Of a DNA stretch of 64,000 nt, positions 2,625-53,243 are shown one piece after another. This DNA comes from Owenia fusiformis. Lineage: Eukaryota; Annelida; Polychaeta; Sabellida; Oweniidae. The notes under the pieces were generated by a model. It was given only the letters and a program-made list of their open reading frames with translations, made no database searches and was not told the origin of the DNA. A program made the position numbers and the translations under genes. Within the stretch, counting starts at the first letter, position 1. The number at the start of each line of letters is the position of its first letter. The DNA lies in NCBI GenBank assembly GCA_903813345.2, contig CAIIXF020000008.1, positions 16,166,822 through 16,230,821 of the forward strand, in the 5' to 3' direction.

Positions 2625-5453
2625 ATGTGGTCGTGGGGGTCATTTAAGCCAGCTGGAATATGCCAAGGAGATTAAGCAGCAAGAAGAGGAACAACTAAGA
2701 GCGAGTTCTCAGGTGAGAACAAGTCTATATACTGAAATGTATAAGTGATACTTTCCAGGATACATGTATGAAGAAACATATTGCTCCTTTCACGTATACT
2801 ATATATGATAAGTTGGTATACCATAAATGATTAATTAGTCAAAATGTTCACAATTCTGTTTCCTGGAAAAACTGACAACCACCAATTTGTCAATTCCTCT
2901 AACAAACTGTCAAAACTGATACTAATGACAAGTACATACAAACTGATTTTTGAAATTTTAGCAGAAAATGTTTTTTCTTCTGCATGGAGTGACATTGATC
3001 TGACTAAAGAGATACACATACATTTAGAAGATGTGAATTTATCCAGTTTGAAGAGCTATACTGGAACATGTATCGTTTTTATGTCACCACCAAAAAGTGG
3101 TGACATATTGTTATTCTCTCCGTTTTTTTATGGCGGTTGGTGATCGGCGATTGGTGGTTGGTGTCTATAACAAATTATGTTAAAAAACTTCCAATAACTT
3201 AACAAATACTGTTTAGACGGACATCAGTTTTTTCAAAATCATCTACAAGTTTTCAGAAGTTCAAATCTGACTTTTTATTCAAGATTTGACCTTCAGGGCC
3301 TTTTCAAAGTCAAAAAGGTCTTTTTTCAACTTGCTTCAAATTGACCTTTTTTGCAAAATCATCTACAAGTTATCAGAAGTTCAAATATGACTAGATTTGA
3401 GATTTGACCTTCATTGACCTTCTCAAGATAAAAAAAGGTCAGAAAGGTATTTTTTCAACTTGCTTCAAATTGACCAATTTTTTTTTTGAAATCATCTACA
3501 AGTTACCAGAGTTCAAATCTGACTTTAGATTTTACCTTCATTGACCTAATCTCAAGGTCAAAAAGGTCTTTTTCATGCTTCAAATTGACAATTTTCTTTC
3601 AAAATCATCTACAAGTTATCAGAAGTTCAAACCTAACTTTAGAATTGAGATTTGACCTTCATTGACCTTCTCAAGGTCAAAAAGGTCAAAAAGATATTTT
3701 TCAACTTGCTTCAAATTGATCAATTTTTTCAAAATTATCTAGAACTTCTCAAAAGTTCAAATCTGACTATAGATTTGAACTTCAATGATATTCTCAAGGT
3801 CAGAAAGGTCTTTTTTCAACTTGCTACAAATTGACCATTTTTTCAAAATCATCTACAAGTTCTCAGAAGTTCAAATCTTTTATTTGAGATTCGACCTCCA
3901 ATGATATTTTCAGGGTCAAAAAAGGTATTTTTTCAACTTGCTTCAAATTGACTATTTTTTCAAAATCATCTACAATTTATAATATTGTGAGCAACTAGGT
4001 GGTCACATTTTGTCATGTTAATGCTTTGTTTCAAAAAGTTTACAATCTAAATAACTAAACAAATACCACACATCGTATTAGTAGGAAGCACTATATAACA
4101 CATATACAGGGTGGGCCAAAAAACGCCACTTTTTTTCAAGACACTACAACTTTTTTATTTTCCAACCTACATACCCCAAATTTTGCAATTATATAGTGCC
4201 AAGGTTTCTTAGTAATAATATAATGTAACAAGTCCTTCAACTTGGATTATATTTTTTTTTATTTATTAAAATCATATAAACATATATACATATAAGTGAT
4301 AATGACACCCTAGTGATCTAAAAGGTGAGTTCAATTGGTCCGCCACCCTAATTGATGATATATTTTACTTGCTTGTCACCTTGCTGATATTGCAGTATCA
4401 ATGAAATGTTAGCTACGTTTTTTCAACCTGTCTTAATTGAGAGCTTTAGTTGAGCAATTTTCTAGATTGGGTTCCTTCATACAATCTCCTGGAGACCTTC
4501 CCATACCCTATACTCACTGGGGTTTGCCTCAGGGTTATTAGCTTGGCGGTCATCAGGGCGTATTAGTTCAGGAACATTTTGCAAATTATGCTTATTTCTC
4601 ATGGCACCCCACATGTTTAAGTGAGATGCTGGTGACATATTTTATTCAAGTAAAAGTGTATAATTTATGATCCATGGATAGACAACAACCTCAAGTTTCA
4701 TTTGGTATGCAAATTATGATTTAATATCAAAAATTAAAAAAGTTATAGCATTTTGAAAAAAAGTGGCGTTTTTTTGGCCCACCCTGTATATGCTGATGTC
4801 ATACTTTGATGTAATATTTCTTATGACTGCGTAGGTGTCAGCACCAAGGATGCACCACATGAACGCAAGTTTACGTGGGGGCCGTAGTGCGGGTGTACCT
4901 AGCCATACCACTATGGATGACCTAGAGACTATCAGTATGGCCAGTGGAATGACAGGTACACAAATCTATATTTGCATGACATTAGGCACAAGATCAATGT
5001 ATGTGTTTTTTGTTTGTGTTTTTTAAAAGAAAGCAAGTTTCAATCTGAAGTAAATGAAATGTTCAATTGGAATTGAAATGTGAGAAGGAAAATAACGTTC
5101 TCCTTCCCAGACTCTTCCACACCACATTTAGTTACACACAGAGGCATATTAACTATATCACCTCCAGTTAGTATCCAAATTTGTTGTGGATGGTGAATGG
5201 CGGTTGGTGTTTGGCAGTCGTGGTCTGTAACAAATGGTAGCTCGTGACATTTTGCATGTTAATTCTGTGTTACGTGCCCTAAGTAAAACTTTCTTTAACC
5301 AACACTTTGATGTAGTTCTGCTATATTTCAGGAGCTACAGAACCAGTGAAGATGCCTGAAGATACTGACCCAGAGAGAACACATGAGATCTATGCTAACT
5401 ATAAGTTCAAGACATATCCCTCCAAGTTACCTATCACAGCACATCAAGAGCAG
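2625..5453 (+). CDS. TDRD9: TDRD9 / Spindle-E-like helicase, N-terminal exons
   Basis: Three exons of a Tudor-domain DEAH-box RNA helicase of the piRNA pathway (germline nuage, transposon silencing). Exons by GT/AG and phase: 2625-2712, 4835-4955, 5332-5453. They read in one frame through phases 1, 0, 1 and 0: a coiled, Glu/Gln-rich stretch (LSQLEYAKEIKQQEEEQL), a poorly conserved linker (MHHMNASLRGG), then the segment before the helicase core (YKFKTYPSKLPITAHQEQ), which matches the TDRD9 position ahead of motif I. The initiator exon is not visible; the first recognised exon starts mid-codon, so at least one exon lies upstream. Continues with the helicase exons at 27,096. Conservation in this part is weaker than in the helicase core; the assignment rests on continuity of frame and order. 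Confidence 0.8.
3080..4030 (+). mobile_element. TGTCACCAC-family element with minisatellite
   Basis: Starts ATGTCACCACCAAAAAGTGG, a hairpin, and ends with GGTGGTCACATTTTGTCATG...TTAATGCTTTG. Contains about seven imperfect units with AACTTGCTTCAAATTGACC and AAATCATCTACAAGTT, the inverse of the array at 19985-21740. In the TDRD9 intron 2713-4834. Confidence 0.75.
4107..4786. mobile_element. Mariner-type MITE, 680 bp
   Basis: Inverted ends CAGGGTGGGCCAAAAAACGC and the complement, about 50 bp, flanked by TA. Starts with the same CAGGGTG as the mariner element at 18267. No transposase. In the TDRD9 intron, 48 bp before the exon at 4835. Confidence 0.82.
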
Positions 5454-8144: not shown

Positions 8145-8150
8145 TTTATT
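8145..8150 (-). terminator. Poly(A) signal of gene A
   Basis: AATAAA on the minus strand about 82 nt past the gene A stop codon; gene B has its own AATAAA at a similar distance. Confidence 0.55.
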
Positions 8151-8231
8151 ATGCAGATCACTTGACAGATAAATTACATTATTTGGTCAAAGGCTGCTGT
8201 AGTACGTACTGTCAATCATGTAGTTGCTGTT

Positions 8232-11200
8232 TTAAAATGAGGAGCTGCTGCTATCGTTTGAACTGTCATAGCTGCTGCTATAGATTGAGCTGTCATAGCT
8301 GCTGCTATAGATTGAGCTGTCATAGCTGCTGCTATAGATTGAGCTGTCATAGCTGCTGCTATAGATTGAGCTGTCATAGCTGCTGCTATAGATTGAGCTG
8401 TCATAGCTGCTACTATAGAATGAACTGTCATAGCTGCTACTATAGATTGAGCTGTCATAGCTGCTGCTATAGATTGAGCTGTCATAGCTGCTGCTATAGA
8501 TTGAGTTGTCATAGCTGCTGCTATAGAATGAACTGTCATAGCTGCTGCTATAGATTGAGCTGTCATAGCTGCTGCTATAGAATGAACTGTCATAGCTGCT
8601 GCTATAGAATGAACTGTCATAGCTGCTGCTATAGAATGAACTATCATAGCTGCTGCTATAGAATGAACTATCATAGCTGCTGCTATAGAATGAACTGTCA
8701 TAGCTGCTGCTATAGAATGAACTGTCATAGCTGCTGCTATAGAATGAACTGTCATAGCTGCTGCTATAGAATGAACTATCATAGCTGCTGCTATAGAATG
8801 AACTATCATAGCTGCTGCTATAGATTGAGCTGTCATAGCTGCTGCTATAGATTGAGCTGTCATAGCTGCTGCTATAGAATGAACTGTCATAGCTGCTGCT
8901 ATAGAATGAACTGTCATAGCTGCTGCTATAGTATGAACTGTCAGGCATATAGCTACCGTAGCTGCTAGGGTAGTATGTTTCAGGTTGTGGCCGTTCACAT
9001 CTTGGCATGCATGGTAATTCTACAAAGAAATGCATAATAATGTAGAAGAGTGTACTTTCCCAAGTGTACTTTCTTACAAATAAGATGCTGTGAATAAAGT
9101 GGATGTATGCCTAGATTACAGTAGTATCTAATTTAGCAGTGATATGTATACTTCAAAATTAGAGGAATATTACATATTTATTTACTTATTCGGTTAATAT
9201 TCATTGTCAAATTCTCTTTACTATATTTTCAAGATTGATATATCAACGTTTTTCCCAAATGAACGGTATTAAGTCATTGATATATTGACGATTGTACTTT
9301 AAGGATTTAGGCCCATGCTTAATCTGTGAGACCATGCATGAGCTTCATTGTATGCAGTTGAGCATTTACCCAGAGTCAGCCTGTGTTTTAATTGGTCAAA
9401 AGTTACAATGCATATCTAACCATGTGATAATACTCACCAAAATGTTCAAAACGTCCTTGGTGGCAGTACGTCTGCCTGAATATGGCCACTCCCTGTTCAA
9501 TATGGGGGAAGCTGCCAGGGTTACACTGTCTTTTCACTGCCTCACCCAACACAGTGCAACCAATATCTACAACATCAAAAAAAATTTCATTCCTCCCTTG
9601 ACTCCCTATTGGTTACTTTTTGTCACGGATGATTGAATGGTTAGGATACTGGTAAGATCATAAAAATCTCAAATGCAACTTTCATGGCTTTTTACAGGAG
9701 TTTGAATGTATGTAAGAATGATTGTTTTTTTGATTAAACAGTAAGGGAAGATTCATAAGTTGATGGAAAATTTCTATAGAAATATGTTTTATACCAGTTA
9801 CATCTGATACTAAAAAGGTCATAAAAATTCATGAGTAAGACCCCGATATTTAAACTCGGATTCCTGGTTTTATTTGGACATCAGCAAACATGAGGTTTGA
9901 GCAAAATTGCTTCAATTCTTATGCTGGGCATTATCAGAAATAGGTTTGATTCTTATGCTAGGCATTATCAGAAGTGGGTTCTATTCTTATGCTGGGCATT
10001 TTCAGAAATAGGTTCTATTCTTATGCTGGGCATTTTCAGAAATAGGTTCTATTCTTATGCTGGGCATTTTCAGAAATAGGTTCTATTCTTATGCTGGGCA
10101 TTTTCAGAAATAGGTTCTATTCTTATGCTGGGCATTATCAGAAATAGGTTCTATTCTTATGCTAGGCATTATCAGAAATAGGTTCTATTCTTATGCTAGG
10201 CATTATCAGAAATAGGTTCTATTCTTATGCTAGGCATTATCAGAAATAGGTTCTATTCTTATGCTAGGCATTATCAGAAATAGGTTCTATTCTTATGCTA
10301 GGCATTATCTGAGCATTATCAGAAATAGGTTCTATTCTTATGCTAGGCATTATCAGAAATAGGTTCTATTCTTATGCTAGGCATTATCAGAAATAGGTTC
10401 TATTCTTATGCTAGGCATTATCAGAAATAGGTTCTATTCTTATGCTAGGCATTATCAGAAGTAGGTTCTATTCTTATGCTGGGCATAAGAGTATATATGT
10501 TCTTATGTCAGGTATAAGAGTAGATCTGTTCTTATTCCAGGTATAGAAGTAGATCTGTTCTTATATCAGGTATAAGAGTAGATCTGTTCTCATTCCAGGT
10601 ATAAGAGTAGATCTGTTCTTGTATTAGGTATAAGAATTGAACCTATTTTGCTCAAACCTCATGTTTGCCTTATGTCTGAGTAAAAGAAGGAATCAGAATT
10701 CAAATGTTGGGGTAATGAGTGCGGTATGTGACAATTATTTTCAAAATCTGATTCAAATATTTCACACGGGTCAGGGAAGGTATAACCCTAATGTCCTTTA
10801 AATTATAAATGCTGATCTTTATATACATACCCAAAACTGTCATAATATCATCACAGATACTTGCAGGGTTGTCTCTTAACTTTTCGGGTATGTAGTGGAA
10901 GTCACCCCCCTTAAGACAGCCCATTTCCTGCCACAAGTTGTCAGGTACGGCCTTAAATTATAAACAAATCTTTCAGTTGCATATAGTTCCTATATAGAAC
11001 TGTTATGATGAATAGGGTTAACATTGGCATATCTAAAACGTGATACTAATGAAATTGAGGTGTTTATATCATATAAACAGAAGTCTATGAAGAAACATAC
11101 TTGATTAGTACTTGATTAGAAAACTAAAGATTTTTACAATAGTGTATTATTTTTCTATAAGAATGGTTACCATTCTTATTATTTGGGAGTATTAAACCAT

Positions 11201-12846
11201 TTTTCACCCATTTTTGCACTTTGAATCATTAGTAACTTCACCAATTTATAACATATTGTGAATCTTTTGGGAGATATTGTAATTGAGATGGTAATGAATA
11301 GATTGATAGGTCAATCATACATGTCGCTTGTAATTTTGTCACCCCCTATAGATCAGATTCTGCCTTTAAAGAACAGTTGTAAGTTTGAGTCATATACAAT
11401 TGAAAGATATAGAAAAACTTGCTTACATGATTGCATATCAACGATGAATGTTGGTTGAATAAATTCATCACTTCACCAGTTCGACAATGATGTTTGTCAG
11501 AAAAATCCCTTAGTCTATTAGTGACACGATCTGTTTCACAAAAATAGATTAAAAAACATGTAAGGAAGTAAAAAAACTCAAATTGTTGTCAAATTAGGTT
11601 GTTGGACTGAAGATATCATTGAAATCTTTACTATAATTTATCAAAATAGCTTACCGTCTATTCTAATATAATATATGCCATCACAATAACTTGAACAATT
11701 GATTTACTGGTGTCAGGCCCGTAACCAGGGAGGGTTGGGGGAACCTTGCCCCTCTGGTTAAAACTGTTTTTGAAATCACCATTCCGAGCACTTTTCAAGT
11801 GATTTTGGCCTTTGGCCGTCTTTGGGCCAAAGTTGTCAAAAGTGAACCCTTCCTGGAATTTTTTAAAAAGTGAACCCCCACCCCCTTGTCAAATCCTGGC
11901 TACGGGCCTGGACCTATAAAGGGATATGTATGACCACTAAATTTCATAAATGCAAATAGTTGTATTTCTTGTTATCATCAGAGGTACGAAGACCTTAATT
12001 CTATGATTTAAGGCAAATATACTACCTTCGATTTTATTCCACACATTGCCAAAGACCTCAATCGCTCTGCGATTTCAGTCTTTAAAAAATGAATAGAAAA
12101 CTCTTCAGTCATATATTGCACCATAAATCATAGAATCTCGGTCTTTAATCATTAAATAATTGTTTAATAAATTGTTACCTAGATTTGGGCAGATATCAGC
12201 CCATCTTTTATCATATGTAACGTCCTTGAGAAGGCCATAGAATTCATCACTGAGACAACTGCCGGTACAGCCTAGAAAATTCTTGAAATCTTCCCTACTC
12301 ATTTCCATCTGTTCTACCTTAAATGATTTTGAAACACATTTATTTGCCCATTATACATCAAGATGGCATTTTTAAAATTCGGTTTCAATTCTTAAATTCT
12401 TATTTTGATCTTATTTCCATGGAAAATGGAATGTTATACTTATCAAAAACAACACTGACAGAATGTCTTAACAACAAAAATAATTCCTAAAATATATGCC
12501 GGGGTATCAAAATAAACTGCGTGCAAGGGTAATGGCCATCAAAATCTCATGAATATGAATCAAAGTAACAGATACCAGTTTTAAGTTTTTTAGATGTTTG
12601 CTTTATTTATTCCACAGCAACTGGATTGAAAAAAGTTATTTCACAAAATATGATTGGAGCAAAGTACTGCCTTGCAGTTCAAAATATAATTCTTTTTTGG
12701 ATCACCCTATAATTTTTTAATAGAAGTGAATAAAATACACTTACTGGTGAGTAACGTTTAAAGATGTTCTTGGTCAGTTTTCCCTTAGCGTGTGGTGCAG
12801 CAAGGGCACATGTGGCCAAAAGGCACACAATGAACACAGACTGCAT
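8232..12846 (-). CDS. Secreted Cys-rich protein A with Ser/Tyr/Asp repeat tail
   Basis: Six coding exons, minus strand: 12745-12846, 12179-12317, 11427-11530, 10831-10951, 9438-9566, 8232-9019 (1,383 nt, 460 aa). All have AG/GT borders and phases 0,1,0,1,1. Signal peptide MQSVFIVCLLATCALA, then a basic NIFKR site. The Cys-rich body has LSDEFY...RWADICP in exon 2, HC/IC in exon 3, ICDD in exon 4 and IGC...SFPHI...YC in exon 5. The last exon begins ELPCMPRCERPQPE and continues with about 25 copies of a 9-residue unit, SSYDSSFYS or SSYDSSIYS, encoded by 27-bp repeats. It is secreted; the function is unknown to me. The Tyr/Ser/Asp tail suggests a structural, adhesive or matrix role (inference). 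It is nested in a TDRD9 intron on the opposite strand and is a paralog of the gene at 22,866-25,048. The short exon 3 is supported by 104-nt identity in length with the paralog and by the alignment. Confidence 0.87.
8256..8945 (-). repeat. 27-bp coding minisatellite in last exon of gene A
   Basis: About 25 head-to-tail 27-bp units. On the minus strand each encodes nine residues ending FYSS or IYSS. Variation is mostly at one codon (Phe/Ile) plus a few substitutions; no unit breaks the frame. Because 27 is a multiple of three, two other frames are open as well and give apparent proteins on both strands; only the SSYDSS frame follows from a splice acceptor in phase with the upstream exons. Confidence 0.9.
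9884..10668. repeat. 34-bp minisatellite bounded by 24-bp inverted repeats
   Basis: In intron 4 of gene A (between the exons at 10831 and 9566). About 17 copies of a 34-bp unit containing TTCTATTCTTATGCTAGGCA (9909-10487), followed by about five diverged ~30-bp units containing AGTAGATCTGTTCTTAT. The whole array lies between perfect 24-nt inverted repeats at 9884-9907 and 10645-10668 (GCAAACATGAGGTTTGAGCA...). This looks like a mobile element carrying tandem repeats rather than simple slippage. Confidence 0.8.
11714..11910. mobile_element. CAGGCCCGTAACCAGG MITE
   Basis: About 197 bp with inverted ends CAGGCCCGTAACCAGG and CCTGGCTACGGGCCTG and Pro-rich-looking C/G runs. A second copy is at 28845-29047. 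In intron 2 of gene A. Confidence 0.7.
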
Positions 12847-13242
12847 TGTTGTTGATGATTTTGAAACTAAAACAGAATGTGGGATCAGTCTTAATTGTTG
12901 TTGACGTTGTCATGCCATTTAAGGAAAATTAAGATTCAGAATAGAATATTAGTTTAGTTTCTGTAGTATTTATATAATTTTTCAAGATTGTGGAAAAAGC
13001 TATTATTGTTATCTGTAACGATTGTTTAATTTTATTTTTGTTCCCTTGTTTTGTTTTAGACATTATTAATATTCAATTTATAATGTCAAGTAGCATTTTC
13101 AATTAATTCTAAATTTTTGAGGTTGCTCTCTACTTCTTTCTATATTTCATAATTCATAAGTGTTTGTCAAAAATAATAATATAAAATTAATTCTTTTTCT
13201 TTCCTTTCTAATGAGATTGAAAAATTAAGAATGCTCTCTTAC

Positions 13243-13303
13243 CTTTGTACTTATGTGTAAAAAGTGAAGTAATATCAAAAAGGTATATACATGACTTTAT
13301 ATA
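13243..13303 (-). promoter_or_regulatory. Gene A TATA box and 5' non-coding exon
   Basis: On the minus strand TATATAAAG (13295-13303) is followed about 30 nt later by the likely transcription start and a short non-coding exon ending GTACAAAG|GTAAGAG at 13243. The partner acceptor TTCTGTTTTAG precedes exon 1 at 12866, 20 nt before the ATG. The same arrangement and nearly the same bases occur upstream of gene B. Confidence 0.75.
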
Positions 13304-16041
13304 CTAAATCATCCAAGCTAAATCTACAAGATTTTAATATTTAATTTATTCATTTGCAAGATGTTTTGAGAACCTACATAATTTGGAAAGCACTTAATAG
13401 CTAAGTGTCAATGACATGTTTGCATAGCTGCAGAAGTATGTTGCAAAATAAGTCTTCATTGCAGGTGTCTCTTGTACCAAAAGGCCATGGGTATATTTCT
13501 CCAAAATTTAGTAAGTTTCAAAGCTACAAAAAAGCTACAAAATCGCAAATTGCGTTTCTCGAAAACTTATATCTTTTTCAGAAGGTTATGAATGATAAAC
13601 TGTATGATGTCATGATTCTAGTTCCCATATTCCATTGTAGGGGTGTGGTGTTAAACTATAAGTATTATTACCACATTGCCAGGCCAGTTCTAGGGGTTTA
13701 AGTGCTAGTTTAGAAGGCATCCATTTTACTTTATCAACCTGAGCAATATGTGACGTCATAGTGATGGTCCATATTGCCGGTCAAGAATGCATTTAATGAC
13801 CAGCAATTTTCCCCGGGAAATTAGATATCGTTCAGTGCGTAACATTTTCTTGCTGTTTCAGTCCCGGTCATTAACGGTGGTAATAATACTAATAACGTCA
13901 TTTCTGCGGTTGGGCCTTCAGCCCTCGGTCCAATATTTCACTATATTGCCCTTCGAAAAGACGTTATTGTACTATTATGCAAGGACATCTAAGCATGTGA
14001 GTGAATATAGTTCGTAATGTTATCAACGGTGAAGCACTGATAATATATTGAAATTTAAATTGATATCAGACCAAAATGAATTTCTTATATACTTCAACTA
14101 TCTATGATATATAATTACTTTAAAAACGAACGTAAATACATGTAAGTGAAGTAAGATTTGCGAAAGACTTACAAGACCTCCAAAGATGTACATAAACTTA
14201 AAATAAAATCGCAAATGAGGTGTTTATTTATAACTTTGCGAAAAAAAGTTACTAATTTCGCAAAGTTACTAAATTTCGAGAAATGCAAGTTAAAAACAAA
14301 CAACAAATGGACTTACTAATTCGCAACTTTACAAACTTTCAAGAAATAAACCCCTGGTCAACAAAGATCATATGTTATTGTGATCCAGGACACTTTGACT
14401 GCATCACTCTTCATTCATTTATCATTTATATTTTCGTCGCACTTTGAGAAACTGCTATATTGGCATCGTATAGTATAGTGTTTAATATGGGTATGATGAA
14501 GTGTATGATCTGTAAAATTAATCACAGGATTTGAAAACTGATGATTTGTTGTGGTTTCTCATGTCAAGAAAGCTGACAAGAAAATTGAATAATCACATGA
14601 ACAAGAACCTTTATTGAATGACCATACCTCTGAGCATCTTAAGGGCAGGTTCACAATGCTTGTCCGAAATATATCATTTGATCATTGTGACTGGTTATGG
14701 TTGGAAAGGCCCTTTTCATGAAACAGCCAGCTACAATGATTTTAGTGAAAACATGTCTAGCCAAATTTAGCAACATATCAGGTTGATTATGCAATATAGA
14801 GAAGGGGACATTGTTGCTTTTGCAGAGAGATTCTATCAAAATCTTTTTGATATGCGCCACTCAATTTGAAAAATACTGGAGATTGCTGAAGAAAGTTACT
14901 TTTTATTTATAATAAATGTAAAAAACTAAAGAAAGAATTTGACTTTTGCCAAAGCACAATATAATTTTTCCCTTTGTTTGATAGAATAAAAACTTAATGT
15001 TAATGTCAGCTTTACTTGTATTTTCTCATAAAAGTGTTTTTTAATTTTTTTAATTTTTAATGATTAAGATCAACTTTTGCCTTTAAGTTAATTGCTCCCT
15101 GGCATTATGTAAATACACTGTACATTTTTATTTTTATAATTTCACCTAATCCATTTTTGTACAAATGGCATGTTTACTTTGCTTCACAAGTATAAAAAAA
15201 TATGTTACCAACTGAAAACATTTCAAAGGATTCTCTATTTTTAAGGTGGAACTTCAGTGTTGACCTACTTTTTTTCTACAATTCAGATTTCCTTGAAAAA
15301 AACTAGGTGAAAGATTTACTGATGTATAACAATATACAGTAGAACCTGTATATCTGAACACCTGGCTAATCCGAACACCTTCCAATTTGAACACTTTTTT
15401 TCGGTCCCATTTTTTCATCCCATTGACTCCCATGTTAAAAAAACCTTGAAATCTGAACACCTCCTAATTTGAACAGTGAACAACCAGATTTGAAAAAGTG
15501 ACCTGTCTGATCTGAACATTTTTATCATTAATCAACTGTCTGGACATTTCAATTAAAGCCACATATTGAGTCAATGTTAAACATGTATGTGAAAATTAGA
15601 AAGATTGAATGATGGGTTATTTCTGAATTTAATTTGATATTGCTTTCAATAAGAAAATCATTGCACAATTCAGATTTTCTTCAAAAAAGATTATGAGTTT
15701 TCTGAAACGCTAACTTTTAACTTTTTCAGTCACATTTTCAGAAGGCTGAAAAAGCTATTTCAGCATGGTAAGGGTCATTTTGACCATAACCATTGTGATC
15801 CTGGTCATTTAAATGTAAATGTAAATGATATATGACCATATATGGTCATATACCCTGCTATCTTACTTCAAAAAATTCTAAAATCCACATTTTTTTCATT
15901 TCCTGTTTGGTGTAAATGACAGGTGGTGGTAAACCCCTCTTTTAGCCCCCCCCCTACAAAACAAGTATATATTGACATGGAATTGAAGAGGACATATGAC
16001 TTATTACTTAAAATGTGATTTCTGAGAATTTAGACATTTCA
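13304..16041. other. TDRD9 intron upstream of gene A, repeats only
   Basis: No exon recognised. Holds a solo CGCACTTTGAGAAA repeat end (14,438), a pogo-like end at 15,338-15,400 (CAGTAGAACCTGTATATCTG) and a half copy of the 391-892 foldback (15,720-15,825). Confidence 0.55.
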
Positions 16042-17761: not shown

Positions 17762-17826
17762 GTCAACTCGTACCCAAGACAACTCGTACCCAAGACAACT
17801 CGTACCCAAGACAACTCGTACCCAAG
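17762..17826 (+). repeat. Four tandem 16-bp units CAACTCGTACCCAAGA
   Basis: Four copies left of the mariner element; three copies in reverse orientation lie right of it at 22238-22286. The pair looks like the ends of an older element into which the mariner inserted. Confidence 0.75.
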
Positions 17827-18570: not shown

Positions 18571-19801
18571 TCATTCTACATAATTGCCACCATTTGCAAC
18601 ACATTTCTCATGTCTGGATACCCATTCCTTGAACACAGAATTAAATCCATTAGAACTCATTCCTTGTAGGGCTAGTACTACGGCATTTTTCAATTCCTCA
18701 CAGGATTGAAAATTATTTCCACTAAGGTTTCTTTTTAGTTCCCCATACAAATAAAAGTCACTGGGGGCAAGATCAGGTGAATAAGGGGCATGTTCAAGTT
18801 GTTGAAATCCAAGTGACTGTGTTGCTGGTCAGGATTGCAGTGTGCGTAGGGGCATTGTCCCAATGCAAGATAAACTGCTGCAGATGTCCGGGACGCTTTT
18901 TCCTCAGGGAACGTTGAAGATCACGCTTCAGAACCTGAAAAACAAATGTTTAATGGTTGTTAAACCAGTTGTTTCATTGATTGGATTTGGATTTGAATCA
19001 TGGCCATGGAGTTATAATTATATTGACAGTGAACAACATTTAAATACTTTAATTTAAAAATAAAATTCACAGTATGATGTATTATTAGAACAAATGATAT
19101 CTTACCTTTGCAATATAAACGGCATTAATTCTCTGGCCAATGGGAACAAAATGGGTTAACACCATTCCTCTAATGTCAAAGAATGTCACAACCATTTGTT
19201 TCTTTTGTGGAATTCCTGGTACTATTTTAGGCTTGGTTGGTGTTGGGGAGTTGTCATGTTTCCACGATGAACTTTGTTGCGTGGTCTCTGGGATGTAGAA
19301 TGATAGCAATGATTCGTCACTCGTAATGATCTTGTTAAGAAAGTCATCTCCATCTCTCCGATATTTTGCAAGAAAGTCCCTTGAAGCCTTAACACGCCGG
19401 TCTTTCTGCTCCTGTGTCAAGTCATGCGGCACCCATTTAGCAGACACCTTCTTTAACAGACAGTTCTTTGTCAGTATCCGTTGCACAGTCCCATAGCTCA
19501 GATCGTGTTTTTCAGCCAATTCTCTGATAGAAATTTGCCTATTGTCCATAACATCAGCTTCAATTGCTTTGATGGTTTGATCATCGAATGACGACACTGG
19601 CCTGCCTCCTCGCTGCTTGTCTACCACTTCATCATATCCACTGGAATACTTGTTAAACCACCTGTAAATGTTTCTCTCAGCAATGGCAGCTTTACCATAT
19701 GCCTTCTTTATCTGTCTTATAGTCTCTTTTACACCTTTCCCCAACTTTACACAGAACTTAATGTTTGTTCTTTGCTCTATTTTTCTCTGACTTGGCGCCA
19801 T
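18571..19801 (-). pseudogene. Mariner DD34D transposase, intron-containing, frameshifted
   Basis: Starts at 19801 (MAPSQRKIEQRT) with a helix-turn-helix region (ETIRQIKKAYG; GRPVSSFDDQ) and the first catalytic Asp in TSDES. Reading frame 19106-19801 ends at GCAAAG|GTAAGA; a second part from 18934 (TTTTTCAG|GTT) restores the family sequence (VLKRDLQRSL), giving an apparent 171-nt intron. Second Asp in HWDNAPTH, third in YSPDLAPSDFYLYG; spacing fits DD34D. The second part has one extra base (364 nt, not a multiple of 3) near 18820, between the second and third Asp, so as read it is not a full-length enzyme. Ends at TGA 18571. Confidence 0.85.
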
Positions 19802-19945
19802 CTTGAATTGGGTGGGTTAGTGTCCTTGGTCATGTTAGTATTTGTCATGGATGATGGAAGCAATTCAAAGAAATTGAAAGCTTTTTATGAATGCCTATTG
19901 TGACATCACAACTATTACATATTTGTTACCATGGCAACAAATATA

Positions 19946-22237: not shown

Positions 22238-22286
22238 CTTGGGTACGAGTTGTCTTGGGTACGAGTTGTCTTGGGTACGAGTTGAC
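22238..22286 (-). repeat. Three inverted 16-bp units matching 17762 array
   Basis: CTTGGGTACGAGTTGT three times, the reverse complement of the array at 17762-17826, 52 bp beyond the right mariner terminus. Confidence 0.75.
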
Positions 22287-22865: not shown

Positions 22866-25048
22866 TTAGATACCGTTACCAGAGCCATCACCAGAGCCAT
22901 CACTGGCGCCACCACTTTGCTGGCACACTTCCTTCAAATCTGCAAAGAAATTCATACAGTTAAAATACTTGTTGCAACCTTTCAAGATACATTCATAAGA
23001 TATGATAATATAAAGCTCATATAATAGTCACTTGTATATATAGCTATGTTTTGAAGACAGCAAAATTTTGTATGACGCATTTGTTCTGTATTTTTCCCAA
23101 ATCATACAAAAACTAAAAAGTGGTAATTTTGCCATATTTGCCCAAAATTCACCAAAACTAGAATTAATTCTAACATCAAATAGCAGTACTGAAATAGTTG
23201 ATGCTTAAGAGATATTTCAAATATATTAATGTAAAGAGTGTGGATTCGTGTGTTGAATTACTCACCAACGGGTTCTAGGTTTCCTCTTTGGCAGTACACC
23301 TGATTGAATATCGCCAGTCCCATTCCAATGTGTGGGAAGCTGTCTTTACTACATCCTCTGTCCTTTGCCTCCTTCAGTACTCTGCATCCAATATCTACAG
23401 CAACAAACAATGGAATGGTAAAACATGTGCATCCTGAATGTTCATTTCAAATAGATTAGATAATACAAAGCTCATCTTTAGTTTATGTAAATGAAGTACA
23501 TCCACATACTTTTTATGGTCTCTGGGTCATCACAGATCTTCTCGGGTGCATCGTCAAATTCAGCAGGTCTGTAGTCAAAGTCTCCTGTTACATCACAATC
23601 CATTTCATACCAAACTTTATCTGGGATGACCTACATAATTTAGTCAGTTTCATTAAGGTCAGTTAAATATAAAGATATGTTAAAAGTAAAAATATGTGAA
23701 ATGTGAATTTGTAAGAAATGTGTCTATTATTATACCATTGATATATATATGTACAAAAAAATTGTGAATATCATATATGATATTTTCAAACTGAATATTT
23801 CAAACATTGGTAGATGTATATTGTTATTGTTATATATTTTTCTTATTTGTGCTCTAATTAAAAGACTGGTCAAAGAATGACTTTGGTAACTTTGGTTTAT
23901 TTTTTTACTTACATGGTCACAAATTGCAGATACATGTTCATCGAAGTAAACCATGATTTCCTCAGTATCACATTCATGACGGATAGATTCATTCCTCAGC
24001 ACTTCACGAGCATCAACTAACCAGATAAAATGAAAATATTATTTATATATTTAAAGTGTGCAATAAATCTAACATCATTTAAAACCAAGTTTATATCAGT
24101 GGATAACAACAGTTGTTTCATTATATTTGTGGGTAAGCTCTAAGCTGTATTAATTTCTGAGTTGTTTCAGGTAGTTTGGTTTTGTAATGATTTACCTGGT
24201 TATATTACTGGTGCAAAACAATAATTTTGTGGATATTTTCACTTGACATTTATCGTTGACTGCATATATAACAAACTTAAATAACATTTATGTCAGTGTT
24301 ACAGGATAATTTTTAGGGTGGTGGCGGTTGGTGATCGGTGGTTGGTGGCATCTAACAAATGGTGGTTACATTTTGCATGTTAATGCTTTGTTTTGATATA
24401 AAATGTTAAAGGGGACATTTGTTTATTACTTACATTTTGTTATTCGGATATGTCTGATTCCACCTTGAAAAAGATAAACGAAAATTTTACAGTACCTGCA
24501 TAGGGACAGATGTCAGCCCATCTATATCTCATTCCATGCTGCATGTGCTCGTAGAATTCATCACTAAGCCTTTTCTTACAACCCATGTATTCCTGGAACT
24601 CGCATCTGGCTATTCTATACTAAAATTATAAAGAAAGGAAAACTAGTAAAACAATTATCTTGATGAAATGCTTTCATCATATATGTAAACTAGTAGTTTC
24701 AGCTTCGTCATGATAACTTTTAGGAAGTGTTTGAAAAGTTGAAAGAGAAAAAAACTCCCATCAGGCAATACAAAGTTATTCTGTGTTTCATTTAATATTT
24801 ACTAGTTTATGAGAAAAAAATCATAGATTGTTGAAAAAGTTGTTCATTCTCTACTTAAGTAGCCTGCATTGTATTGTCAATGATCTGGTTTGTACTGCTG
24901 AAAGATTGCAAGCATAAAAAGGTGACTGTCCAGTAGAGAAGCTAATACTTACTGGCTCTTGCTGGCGTTTGAAGATTCTCTTGCCGAGATTTGCCTCTGC
25001 GGCGAGGACCACTATGGCCAGTAGGCAAACAATGAACACAGACTTCAT
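22866..25048 (-). CDS. Secreted Cys-rich protein B, short Gly/Ser/Asp tail
   Basis: Six coding exons, minus strand: 24953-25048, 24496-24619, 23913-24016, 23510-23630, 23266-23394, 22866-22939 (648 nt, 215 aa). Splice phases equal those of gene A, and exons 3, 4 and 5 have exactly the same lengths (104, 121, 129 nt). Signal peptide MKSVFIVCLLAIVVLA, then KRIFKR, a possible furin-type cleavage site. The body has 11 cysteines and conserved LSDEFY, RWADICP, ICDD, IGC.VL.EA, SFPHI and YC. The last exon has one Cys, then GGASDGSGDGSGNGI and a stop. No membrane segment after the signal peptide. I do not recognise the family. It lies in the same TDRD9 intron as gene A, antisense to TDRD9, with a mariner element between the two paralogs. 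Confidence 0.88.
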
Positions 25049-42935: not shown

Positions 42936-44809
42936 TTAGACTCCAGATTGAAAATCTGGAGTCTATTGTTTTTGCCTGTTTTCTTATTAGACTCCAGATT
43001 GAAAATCTGGAGTCTATTGTTTTTGCCTGTTTTCTTATTATTATTATTCTTTTTTCTTCCTCCTTACCAAATTTCTCGTCAACTATAACAGCTTACTTAA
43101 TCCAACTTACATGGTTAACTAAAGACTGTATCCGGCTTTCTGGGAAATTAGGTCAAATTTTTATCTAGGTCAAAGGTCAAGAACTAGGTCAAATCCAGTA
43201 CTTTGTCACTTTTTCCCATTATCTCGGTCGTCCTTCAATATTTTTGATCCTGGTTTTTTTCATTGTGTTTCTCATAAAAAAGTAGAAAACCTAGGGTCGA
43301 TTTAGTTTTTTGGTATCTCAAACCGATTTCGAGATATCAGTGTCCGAAAACGAGGTCCAAAAAAAATTTCACCGAATTCGATGTCCAGGATATCAGTCTT
43401 ATAGATAATTTTCTCAGGATTCCGAATCTGAAAACCAAATTTCGATCTGACTTCCGGTTCAGAAGTTATGGCGTTTTGAAAATTCAAAAATCGCTAAATT
43501 TGGTGCCCCATGTTAATTCAATGGGAAAAAATATTTTTTTGAAGTGTAAAATACGAGATATAAACTAAGCACAGCTAAACATAATGGAAGCCCATAAAAG
43601 AAAGGGACCACAAGACCTTCTTTTCATAAAAATTTGGACACCAAAATGCCTAGGTCAAAATCTAGGTCAAATTCAAAGTTTTTCCTTATTTTTGCGATTC
43701 TGACACTACAGATTAATTATATTCTTCGAAAATGTGTATACATGTAGCCAAGAGTGTGCTAATAGTGTTAGCCTTTTGCCGTCAGAACATATTTTGACCC
43801 ACTTTTGAGATATGGTGTCCGAAAAGTAGGTCAAACTAAAAAGTTCTCTAAATTTAACGTATGAGTTATGAACTAAGGGTAGAATTTTCTCAGGAATCTA
43901 AATCTGCAAACCAAATTTAAATCCGACTTTTGGTTTGGAATTTATGTCGTTTTGAAAGCTCAAAAATCGCTAAATTTGGTGCCCCATGTTATGGCAATGG
44001 GAAAAAATATTTTTTTGAAGTGTAAAATACGAGATAAAGACTGAGTACAGCTTCACATAATGAAAGCCTATAAAAGAAAGTGACCTCAAAAGCTAGCTAG
44101 CTTCACAATTTGGTCACCAAAATGCCTAGGTCAAAATCTAGGTCAAATTTATAGTTTTAACTTATTTTTGCGATTCTGACACTACACTTTAATTATTTGC
44201 TTCAAAATTTTGTATACAAGTAGCAAAGAGTGTGCTAATAGTGTTAGCCTTTTGCCGTCAGAAAGTATTTTGACCCACTTTTGAGATATAGTGTCCGAAA
44301 AGTAGGTCAACATGAAAGTTTCTCCAAATTTAACGTATGAGTTATGAATTAAGGGTAGAATTTTCTCAGGAATCCGAATCTGCAAATCAAATTTCAATCC
44401 GACACCCGGTTTGGAAGTAATGGCGTTTTGAAAAATTAAAAAATTGGTATTTTGATATCCAATGTTATGTCAATTATCTTTGTCACTATTCGTTGTTATT
44501 CCTTTATCTTTTTTTCATCATGTAGCTTAAAGACAGTCCTTTCATTATTGTAAATGTCTTTTTTGATTACTCTTACCGATTTTGAGGAATGGCGTCCGGA
44601 AAGTAGGTCAACATAAAAAGTTTTCAAAATTTAATGTATGAGTTATGACACAAACGTAGAATTTTCTCAGAAATTCGAATCTGCAAACCAAATTTCGACC
44701 CAAATTCTGGTTAGATAATGGCTCAGCTAACAGTATTTTGGATGACTCAGCTTAAAAAAAGTTTTAAATCTGGAGTCTTAAATTGAACTTGTTCAATTTA
44801 CATGTCTAG
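42936..44809 (+). mobile_element. AGACTCCAGATT-family, Helentron/HINE-like element 1a
   Basis: 5' end TTAGACTCCAGATTGAAAATC, itself duplicated in tandem (42936 and about 42988). 3' end AATCTGGAGTCT, then a hairpin AAATTGAACTTGTTCAATTT, ACATGT and CTAG followed by T. Subterminal inverted 12-mers, a 3' hairpin and a CTAG-T end resemble Helentron-associated elements. Inside are ~600-bp repeats with TAGGTCAAAATCTAGGTCAA and GTGTCCGAAAAGTAGGTCA. No protein coded. Confidence 0.6.
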
Positions 44810-46410
44810 TTATTATTATTCTTCATTCTTTCTTTCTTCCTCCTAACAGATTTTCTCTCCAACTATAACATCTTAATAAATCCAACCTACATGGTTGACT
44901 AGGGAATGTATCTGGCTTTCTGGGAAATTAGGTCAAATTTTTATCTAGGTCATAGGTCAAGAACTAGGTCAAGTCTTGGATTTTCACTAATTCACCACTT
45001 TTCTCAGTCGTCTTTCAATATTTTCGCTCCGGGTTTTTTTCATCATGTTCCTTGGAAAAAACGCTAATTCCGTAAGGCAAATCGTTTTTTGATTACTCTT
45101 ACCGATTTTGAGATATTGCGTCCGAAAAGTAGGTCAGAACAAAAAACTCTCCAAATTCAACATGTGAGTTATGAAATAAGTGAAGAATGATCTCAGGAAT
45201 CTGAATCTGCAAACCAAATTTGGATCGGACTTCTGGTTCGGAAGTTATGGCGTTTTGAAAGCTCAAAAATCGCTAAATTTGGTGCCTATGTTAAGTCAAT
45301 AGGAAAAAAGACTTTTTCGAAGTGTAAAATACAAGATATAGACTGAGTACAGCTTAACATAATGAATGCTTATAAAAGAAGGGGACCTCAAAAGCTACAT
45401 AGCTTCAAAATTTGGACACCAAAATGCCTAGGTCAAAATCTAGGTCAAATTCATAGTTTTTCCTTATTTTTACGATTCTGACACTACACTTTAATAATTT
45501 ACTTCAAAATTTTGTATACAGGTAGCAAATAGTGTGCTAATAGTGTTAGCCTTTTGCCGTCAGAAAGTATTTTGACCCACTTTTGAGATATGGTGTCCGA
45601 AAAGTAGGTCAAAATAAAAAGTTCTCCAAATTTAACATATGAGCTATGAATTAAGGGTAGAATTTTCCCAGAAATCCGAATCTGCAAACTAAATTTCAAT
45701 CCGACTTTCGGTTCGGAAGTTATGGCGTTTTGAAAGCTCAAAAATCGCTAAATTTGGTGCCCCATGTTATGTCAATGAGAAAAAAGATTTTTTGAAGTGT
45801 AAAATACCAGATATAAACTGAGTACAACTTAACATTCTGAAAGCCTATAAAAGAAGGGGACCTCGAAGGCTATCTAGCTTTAAAATTTGGACACCAAAAT
45901 GCCTAGGTCAAAATCTAGGTCAAATTCATATTTTTCCTTATTTTTGCGATTCTGACATTACACTTTAATGATTTGCTTCGAAATTTTGTATACAGGTAGC
46001 AAAGAGTGTGCTTATAGTGTTAGCCTTTTGCCGTCAGAAAGTATTTTGACCCACTTTTGAGATATGGTGTCCGAAATGTAGGTCAGAATAGAAAGTTCTC
46101 CAAATTTAACGTATGAGTTATGAATTAAGGGTAGATTTTTCTCAGGAATCCAAATCTTTAAAGCAAATTTCGATCCGTACTTCTGGTTCGATAGTTATAG
46201 CGGTTTGAAGTCTAGAAAAGTCGATATGATGATATCCCCATGTTAAGCCAATGGAGTCGAAGATAACATTCTTAAGAGTTGTCTAAATGTCTATATTCTA
46301 GCTGACTCAGCTTATTCTGAATGACTCAGCTTACAATTCTGGATGACTCAGCTTAAAAAAAGTTTGAAATCTGGAGTCTTAAATTGAACTTGTTCAATTT
46401 ACATGTCTAG
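44810..46410 (+). mobile_element. AGACTCCAGATT-family element 1b, tandem, 5' end lacking
   Basis: Directly continues from the CTAG end of 1a with TTATTATTATTCTTC and ends with the same hairpin and CTAG at 46407-46410, preceded by three copies of GACTCAGCTTA. A tandem arrangement of this type is known for rolling-circle elements (established for Helitrons; inference here). Confidence 0.55.
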
Positions 46411-50963: not shown

Positions 50964-53243
50964 CTAGATTTGTGAAATTGAACAAGTTCAATTTAAGACT
51001 CCAGATTTATTTTACCTAGATAGATCAGTAAAGAGCTGAGTAATTAACTGAGTAATTAGCTGAGTAAGTACCTTAGTAGTAGTTGAGTAAGTAGCTGAGT
51101 AAGTAACTGGGTAAAAAGCTGAGTAGGTAGCTGAGTAAGTAGCTGAGTAAGTACCTGAGTTAGTAGCTGAGTAAGTAGCTAAGTAAGTAATAACTAATTA
51201 AGCAATTGAGTAAGTAGTCAAATAAGTAGCTGAGTAGGTAGGGAGGTAAAGTAGGGTATGTAGGAATTTTTGAAAGTTTATTTGATCAATCTGCATCGTG
51301 AATACTGGCAAGTGCGAATTTCAAACTTCAAAATGGCTTAGAATCTTAGCCGGGGGTCGGATTGCAATTTTAATTTCAGATCCGGATTCCTTAGGAAATT
51401 CTACCCCTAATTCATAACTCATACGTTAAATTTGGAGAACTTTTTATTTTGACATACATTTCGATCACCATATCTCAAAAGTGGGTCAAAACACTTCTTG
51501 ACGGCAACAATTTAACGTTATGAGCCCACTCTTTGCTACATGTATACAAAATTTCGAAGAATATCATTGAAGTGTAGTGTCCGAATTGCAACAATAAGAA
51601 AAAACTAAGAATTTGACCTAGATTTTGAACTAGGTATTTTGGTGTCCAAATTTTGAAGGAAAGTAGCTTTTGAGGTCCCCTTCTTTTATGGGCTTTCATT
51701 ATGTTTAGCTGTACTCATTCTATATCTCGTATTTTTACACTTCAAAAAATTATTCGGTCCCACTGATTTAACATGGGGCACCAAATTTAGCGATTTTTGA
51801 GATTTCAAAACGCCATAACTTCAGAACAAGAAGTCGGATCGAAATTTGGTTTGCAGATTTGGATTCCTGAGAAAATTATACCTTTAATTCATAACTCACA
51901 CATTAAATTTGGATAGTTTTTATTTTGACCTACTTTTAGGACACCATATCTCAAAAGTGGGTCAAAATACTTTCTGACGGCAAAAAGCTAACACTATGAG
52001 CATACTCTTTGCTACCTGTATACAAAATTTTAAAGCAAATCATTTGAATATAGTGTCAGAATCGCAAAAATAAGGAAAAACTATGAATTTGACCTAGATT
52101 TTAACCTAGGGATTTTGGTGTCCAAATTTTGAAGCTAAGTAGCCTTCGAGGTCCCCTTCTTTAATAGGCTTTCATTATATTAAGCTGTACTCAGTTTATA
52201 TCTCGTATTTTACACGTAAAAAAAATCTTTTTTCCCATTGACATAACATGGGGCAGCAAATTTAGCGATTTTTGAGCTTTCAAAACGTCATAACTTCCGA
52301 ACAGGAGGTCGAATCAAAATTTGGTTTGCAGATTCAGATTCCTGATAAAATTCTACCCCTAATTCATAACTCATACGTTAAATTTGGAGAACTTTTTAGT
52401 TTGACCTACTTTTCGGACACCATATCTCAAAAGTGGGTCAAAATACTTTCTGACGGCAAAAGGCTAACACTATTAGCACACTCTTGGCTACATGTATACA
52501 AATTTTCGAAGAATATAATTAATCTGTAGTGTCAGAATCGCAAAAATAAGGAAAAACTTTGAATTTGACCTAGATTTTGACCTAGGCATTTTGGTGTCCA
52601 AATTTTTATGAAAAGAAGGTCTTGTGGTCCCTTTCTTTTATGGGCTTCCATTATGTTTAGCTGTGCTTAGTCTATATCTCGTATTTTACACTTCAAAAAA
52701 ATATTTTTTCCCATTGAATTAACATGGGGCACCAAATTTAGCGATTTTGAATTTTCAAAACGCCATAACTTCTGAACCGGAAGTCAGATCGAAATTTGGT
52801 TTTCAGATTCGGAATCCTGAGAAAATTTCCTATAAGACTGATATCCCGGACATTGGATTCGGTGAAATTTTTTTTGGACCTCGTTTTCGGACACTGATAT
52901 CTCGAAATCGGTTTGAGATACCAAAAAACTAAATCGACCCTAGGTTTTCTACTTTTTTATGAGGAACACAATGAAAAAAACCAGGATCAAAAATATCGAA
53001 GGACGACCGAGATAATGGGAAAAAGTGACAAAGTACTGGATTTGACCTAGTTCTTGACCTTTGACCTAGATAAAAATTTGACCTAATTTCCCAGAAAGCC
53101 AGATACATTCCCTAGTTAATCATGTAAGCAGCTTAAAGTAAGCTCTTCTAGTTGGTGAGAAATCTGGGAAGGAGGAAGAAGAATAATAATAATAAAGAAA
53201 ACTGGCAAAAGCAATAGACTCCAGATTTTCATCTGGAGTCTAA
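50964..53243 (-). mobile_element. AGACTCCAGATT-family element 2, inverted
   Basis: Opposite orientation to element 1a: CTAG at 50964-50967, hairpin AAATTGAACAAGTTCAATTT, AGACTCCAGATT, then internal repeats as in 1a, ending ATCTGGAGTCTAA at 53243. Contains a 12-bp minisatellite GCTGAGTAAGTA (51026-51240). Together with 1a/1b it brackets PAN/F5-8C copy 3. Confidence 0.62.

What the first reader, a model, noticed from the sequence alone, without database searches (positions are those of the whole stretch)
8232..9019. A paralog has a last exon of ~25 Ser/Tyr/Asp 9-mers
The 27-bp array is entered through a clean acceptor (TTTCTTTGTAG) in exactly the phase left by exon 5, and its frame runs without breaks to a stop. 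Gene B has a 24-codon Gly/Ser/Asp tail at the same place. A secreted, Tyr-rich, acidic repetitive tail on a Cys-rich body suggests an adhesive, tube, silk or matrix protein, with Tyr open to oxidation or cross-linking (inference).
Basis: partly seen in the sequence, partly recalled or inferred. Interest (0 to 1): 0.78.

Follow-up and report, generated by a model that had tools for sequence, protein, structure and literature searches.

The report
Worm secreted protein with Ser/Tyr tail
One of three related secreted, cysteine-rich proteins in this worm genome carries a long tail of 25 near-identical nine-residue repeats rich in serine and tyrosine, which makes it a candidate ingredient of the glue or lining of the worm's sand tube, although nothing yet shows where it is made.

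Summary
Window 8232-9019 (minus strand) reads as the last coding exon of a gene, here called A: canonical acceptor, entry phase 1, 25 tandem units of YSSSYDSS[F/I], then a stop. An open frame alone is weak evidence, because 3 of 6 frames lack stops across the array. The stronger evidence is homology. Gene B (same window) and gene C (another chromosome) share exon-3/4/5 lengths, all splice phases, a TATA box, a leader-exon donor, the last acceptor, a cysteine after it, and a poly(A) signal 81-82 nt past the stop. Between those landmarks the Ser-rich tail is 7 residues in C, 16 in B and 249 in A.

One match to the array was found in the genome. The body matched no Pfam family above cut-off and no solved structure; a genome search found only A, B and C. 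Chromosome number and forkhead-gene placement identify Owenia fusiformis, an annelid of a sand-tube-building genus.

Best reading: a secreted disulfide-rich protein with a disordered acidic Ser/Tyr tail that works like sandcastle-worm polyserine cement proteins. Family membership is not supported. Expression and modification are untested.

The parts
13295..13305 (-). TATA box of gene A (AGTATATAAAG)
   Evidence: identical 11-mer in the 5' flanks of genes A, B (+ coordinate 25599) and C (L001 8372), inside a conserved stretch
13243..13270 (-). untranslated leader exon of gene A; donor after ...GTACAAAG; 5' end approximate
   Evidence: donor and upstream sequence conserved in A, B and C; no transcript seen
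12745..12866 (-). exon with start codon (ATG 12844-12846), signal-peptide-like leader and the conserved IFKR dibasic stretch
   Evidence: coding part 12745-12846; acceptor upstream conserved; IFKR invariant in 3 of 3 proteins
12179..12317 (-). gene A coding exon 2 (body)
   Evidence: matched by gene B protein
11427..11530 (-). gene A coding exon 3 (body), 104 nt as in B and C
   Evidence: weak match to gene B protein, E 0.24
10831..10951 (-). gene A coding exon 4 (body), 121 nt as in B and C
9438..9566 (-). gene A coding exon 5 (body), 129 nt as in B and C
8232..9019 (-). gene A coding exon 6: Cys-containing start, 25 x 9-residue Ser/Tyr/Asp repeat, stop
8145..8150 (-). poly(A) signal AATAAA, 82 nt after the stop
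   Evidence: same signal 81 nt (B) and 82 nt (C) after the stop; flanking 3' sequence aligns
22866..25048 (-). paralog gene B, six coding exons: 24953-25048, 24496-24619, 23913-24016, 23510-23630, 23266-23394, 22866-22939; 215 aa

Best explanation
Gene A encodes a 460-residue pre-pro-protein: a signal peptide, a short pro-segment ending in a dibasic KR, a disulfide-rich body of about 180 residues with 10 conserved cysteines, and a 249-residue tail made mostly of 25 YSSSYDSS[F/I] units. Shown from sequence: the gene model, its two paralogs and the tail's repeat structure. Inferred: the protein is secreted; the body folds and may anchor or oligomerise it; the tail is disordered and multivalent, with Ser (phosphorylated in the secretory pathway) and Asp binding Ca2+/Mg2+ and Tyr giving aromatic contacts and, after oxidation, cross-links, so that the secretion condenses and sets as glue or lining of the sand tube. 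It would work like the Pc-3/Sa-3 cement proteins of sandcastle worms without being one of them. I put about 0.92 on the coding claim, 0.85 on secretion and 0.4 on a tube, glue or lining role.
For: Three paralogs share exon-3/4/5 lengths (104, 121, 129 nt) and all splice phases; exon 6 enters in phase 1 in 3 of 3. Conserved TATA box and leader donor, exon-6 acceptor and 3' region, poly(A) signal at 82/81/82 nt. Body identity 43-67%, with dN below dS in 3 of 3 pairs. Tail: 134 Ser, 55 Tyr and 27 Asp of 249, computed pI 4.05. AlphaFold2 on the translated exon alone gave mean pLDDT 31 and no secondary structure, compatible with disorder. Owenia fusiformis: 12 chromosome-size contigs (published 12) and forkhead matches on the nine expected contigs and on none of the three others. 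Owenia collaris incorporates sediment grains in its tube. Pc-3 is 72.9 mol% Ser, up to 90% of it phosphorylated, and Sa-3C begins with an SY-rich region. FAM20C and tyrosinase domains are in this genome (12 and 14 rows).
Against: No transcript, tissue or protein evidence. The tail is 54% Ser, less than Pc-3, and has Tyr every 4-5 residues. It has 0 S-x-E sites, the main FAM20C motif named (26 S-x-D and 26 S-x-x-D/E instead). Most animals have FAM20C and tyrosinase (recalled), so their presence says little. AlphaFold2 on a lone repeat sequence is poor evidence either way. A secreted Cys-rich protein with a KR pro-site also fits a hormone, immune or venom-type protein. Minisatellites are common here: a 34-bp array lies in an intron of the same gene.
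Confidence: 0.42

Rival explanations
1. The tail is a coding but nearly neutral minisatellite expansion at a tolerant C-terminus. The Cys-rich body does the work (unknown secreted role) and the tail has little or none.
For: The units are 96% alike, so the array is young or homogenised. C's tail is 7 residues and B's 16, so the family works without a long tail. Other minisatellites are common in this window, and an unrelated 27-bp array elsewhere also has a stop-free frame.
Against: The flanks of the array keep the same Ser/Tyr/Asp chemistry with different codons (YPSSYGSYMPDSSY). The 26 copies show 0% indels, though several other arrays in the window do too. Three of six substitution types are synonymous, with the others mainly F/I; this is too few to count as a test.
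Confidence: 0.3
2. The protein is a secreted signalling, immune or venom-type effector: pre-pro leader with a dibasic site, then a disulfide-rich domain, with the tail as a carrier or retention segment.
For: IFKR is invariant at the end of the leader in 3 of 3 proteins; 10 invariant cysteines; small lineage-restricted family.
Against: No match to any Pfam family above cut-off or solved structure; a 249-residue Ser/Tyr repeat is unusual for such proteins (recalled).
Confidence: 0.2
3. The array is not translated in gene A: the true last exon lies elsewhere, or the array is 3' UTR or intron.
For: Only sequence evidence exists; 3 of 6 frames are open anyway; the two non-repeat places hit by the tail query are non-genic short repeats.
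Against: Acceptor, following Cys, 3' region and poly(A) distance match genes B and C.
Confidence: 0.07

Closest known systems
Pc-3A/B of Phragmatopoma californica and Sa-3A/B/C of Sabellaria alveolata (polyserine tubeworm cement proteins)
   Same: Signal peptide (here by eye), repetitive Ser-rich acidic region, Tyr among Ser runs (Sa-3C is described as starting with an SY-rich region), tube-building annelid
   Different: Gene A has a Cys-rich body before the tail, 54% rather than about 73% Ser, regular 9-residue units with Asp and Phe/Ile, and no shown expression in cement glands. No sequence of Pc-3 or Sa-3 was held to align.
Paralogs B (window 22866-25048) and C (L001 4938-7644) of the same genome
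   Same: Body, exon structure, promoter, 3' end
   Different: Tails of 16 and 7 residues (Gly/Ser/Asp-rich, no Tyr)
Low-complexity [S/G]Y[S/G] segments such as FUS (recalled)
   Same: Regular Tyr in a Ser-rich disordered chain; possible multivalent condensation
   Different: FUS is nuclear and not secreted; resemblance is of composition only and was not tested here

Membership tests
Pc-3/Sa-3 polyserine cement proteins | Signal peptide | tested here: inconclusive
   Leader M[QK]SV[FL]IVCLLA... shared by A, B and C; judged by eye, no predictor run
Pc-3/Sa-3 polyserine cement proteins | About 73 mol% Ser (value for Pc-3) | tested here: not met
   134 of 249 tail residues (54%), lower over the whole protein
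Pc-3/Sa-3 polyserine cement proteins | Acidic through phosphoserine, up to 90% of Ser modified | not testable with these tools
   needs mass spectrometry; FAM20C domains exist in the genome, but the tail has 0 S-x-E sites
Pc-3/Sa-3 polyserine cement proteins | Expression in cement gland cells | not testable with these tools
   no expression data held
Pc-3/Sa-3 polyserine cement proteins | Sequence homology outside the Ser-rich part | not tested
   no Pc-3 or Sa-3 sequence was held or typed
Owenia A/B/C secreted Cys-rich family (defined here) | Exon lengths 104/121/129, identical phases, 10 invariant Cys | tested here: met
   3 of 3 genes
Any Pfam family | Match above the curated cut-off | tested here: not met
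   A: best Nlig-Ia E 0.15, below cut-off; B: none; C: best Churchill E 0.31, below cut-off

The most novel reading that the evidence does not exclude
The deepest annelid branch with a sand tube evolved its own Ser/Tyr cement chemistry, independent of sabellariids, by expanding a 7-16-residue Ser-rich tail of a disulfide-rich secreted protein into a 25-unit array. The tail would condense with Ca2+/Mg2+ through phosphoserine and Asp and set by Tyr coupling, while the disulfide-rich body anchors it.
Probability: 0.2. Interest if true: 0.6.

Novelty: new variant of a known kind. Interest (0 to 1): 0.4.

Why it matters
The proteins that bind sand grains in oweniid tubes were not found described in the searches made here (open-licence full texts only). 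Oweniids lie near the base of annelids (passages), so a named candidate gene makes it testable whether Ser-rich cement chemistry is ancestral to tube worms or arose more than once. The three paralogs also give a clear stepwise case of a C-terminal tail growing between fixed landmarks (acceptor and poly(A) signal).

Tried and rejected
A first gene model without exon 3 broke the frame; the missing exon was found from gene B's exon 3. In one search an enumeration of AG/GT pairs gave 110 stop-free combinations for gene A; the one kept is that with exon lengths equal to B and C, so the model rests on homology and not on openness.

Reading the frame from variation within the array: inconclusive. Absence of indels in the array: not decisive, as several other arrays in the window have none.

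Other Ser/Tyr arrays in the genome: of 7 rows from the tail query, 5 are the array itself; the 2 others (C2, C12; 29-33% identity) are frames of short repeats without a sign of a gene (Tandem Repeats Finder run on the C12 piece only).

Repeat strings in papers: 0 papers (open-licence texts only). Dispersed satellite: rejected, one match in G000.

Full report
What is there. On the minus strand of the window a six-coding-exon gene (A) runs from 12846 to 8232; the exons are 12745-12846, 12179-12317, 11427-11530, 10831-10951, 9438-9566 and 8232-9019, and the coding sequence is 1383 nt, 460 residues. The last exon coincides with the finding's coordinates. It encodes 25 tandem 9-residue units, YSSSYDSSF or YSSSYDSSI with two single variants (one N for S, one N for F/I), followed by NDSSSSSF and a stop. 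Seven distinct 27-mers make up the array; the two commonest occur 9 and 8 times.

Is it coding? Openness is not enough. Three of six frames have no stop across the array, and two of the three coding-strand frames are open from the acceptor on. An unrelated 27-bp array on contig C12 (10.5 copies) also has one frame without stops. Variation inside the array gives 3 of 6 synonymous substitution types in the proposed frame against 0, 2, 0, 4 and 1 of 6 in the other five; the frame with 4 is itself full of stops. This is compatible with coding and not a test.

The case rests on paralogs. Gene B in the same window and gene C on contig C5 (locus L001, fetched) have six coding exons with the same phases throughout and the same lengths for exons 3, 4 and 5 (104, 121, 129 nt). 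All three have an identical AGTATATAAAG box, a conserved leader-exon donor and a conserved acceptor before the ATG. The start of exon 6 aligns at the DNA level across the acceptor, and the first cysteine of B and C exon 6 aligns with the second of A. The first AATAAA lies 82, 81 and 82 nt after the stops of A, B and C, in 3' sequence that aligns except for the first 40 or so bases in A. Between these landmarks the tail after the cysteine region is 7 residues in C (SGGSSGD), 16 in B (SGGASDGSGDGSGNGI, which holds a short 12-bp tandem repeat) and 249 in A. The same slot has thus grown by tandem duplication at least in B and A (inference).

Body. After the leader A has 12 cysteines, B 11 and C 10; ten are invariant. 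Body identity is 45% (A-B), 43% (A-C) and 67% (B-C); Nei-Gojobori dN/dS is 0.498/1.485, 0.512/1.088 and 0.189/0.458, so the body is under purifying selection, with dS near saturation for A. IFKR is invariant where a leader or pro-segment would end. No Pfam match reached its cut-off (an earlier partial query gave none), and no PDB sequence match was convincing (best E 0.82 with B; 0.18 with a profile of the three). Searching G000 with most of gene B's protein gave 14 rows from 15 candidates, and all 14 lie in A, B or C; the tool calls its counts lower bounds.

Tail chemistry. 134 Ser, 55 Tyr and 27 Asp of 249 residues, computed pI 4.05. It holds 26 S-x-x-D/E, 26 S-x-D and 28 S-x-S sites but no S-x-E site. 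AlphaFold2 on the translated exon alone gave mean pLDDT 31.1, pTM 0.11 and no secondary structure, compatible with disorder but weak, since it had no alignment.

Organism. G000 is 498.3 Mb with 12 chromosome-size contigs of 31.9-62.2 Mb; C13 to C18 are 0.66 Mb or less. Owenia fusiformis was published as 505.8 Mb in 12 chromosomes (PMC9977687, passages seen); the totals differ by about 7.5 Mb. If contigs C1-C12 are in alphabetical order of chromosome number (an inference from the order of their sizes), the published placement of Fox genes on chromosomes 1, 2, 3, 5, 6, 7, 8, 11 and 12 (PMC9539403, passages seen) predicts matches on C1, C5, C6, C8, C9, C10, C11, C3 and C4. The forkhead search gave 38 rows, on exactly these nine contigs and none on C2, C7 or C12. 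It also shows close groups on C8 and C10, as described for foxQ2 on chromosomes 5 and 7, and a close pair on C3, as for foxC-foxL1 on chromosome 11. I treat the species as settled in practice.

Function. Owenia collaris is described with sediment grains in its tube, and a reference title names tube structure of O. fusiformis (PMC4375521, passages seen). [quoted passage not shown] FAM20C is the proposed kinase (PMC12621633, passages seen). Phosphates there are thought to bridge through Ca2+/Mg2+ (PMC4275877, passages seen). FAM20C and tyrosinase domains exist in G000 (12 and 14 rows), which most animals would share (recalled). So the tail could work like Pc-3, but gene A fails the Ser-content feature and has a body that the descriptions seen of Pc-3 do not mention. 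I do not file it in that family.

Setting. Genes A and B lie antisense between two plus-strand exons that I read as parts of one DEAH helicase; the downstream exons match Spindle-E best (9nhs_G, E 4.4e-57), the insect counterpart of TDRD9 (recalled). That the exon near 5332-5453 belongs to the same gene is my reading of the sequence.

Noticed in passing
window 8185-8231 (minus): After gene A's stop the same frame stays open for 14 codons (NSNYMIDSTYYSSL) with tail-like composition before a TGA: a relic of a longer tail, or chance.
   Followed up: partly
window 9904-10486: A 34-bp minisatellite of 16.8 copies lies in the intron between coding exons 4 and 5 of gene A.
   Followed up: no
window 5332-27100: Genes A and B appear nested antisense in an intron of a plus-strand Spindle-E/TDRD9-like helicase.
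   Followed up: partly
window 19085-19816 (minus): 243-residue open frame with Mos1-type HTH and Transposase_1 matches, a mariner-like element between genes A and B.
   Followed up: partly
window 17764-17826 and 22238-22284: A 16-bp tandem repeat (CAACTCGTACCCAAGA, 3.9 copies) and its reverse complement (2.9 copies) flank a 4.4-kb segment that holds the mariner-like frame and a 136-bp-period array: possibly one inserted unit.
   Followed up: no
L001 2100-3290 (minus): Beside gene C, an open stretch looked on reading like a secreted fibrinogen-domain protein with a coiled-coil start; not searched.
   Followed up: no
L020 1516-1798: An unrelated 27-bp tandem array of 10.5 copies, with one stop-free frame; a reminder that open frames in such arrays are common.
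   Followed up: yes
window 43407-46209 and 51356-52827: Arrays of a 475-476-bp unit in several places.
   Followed up: no
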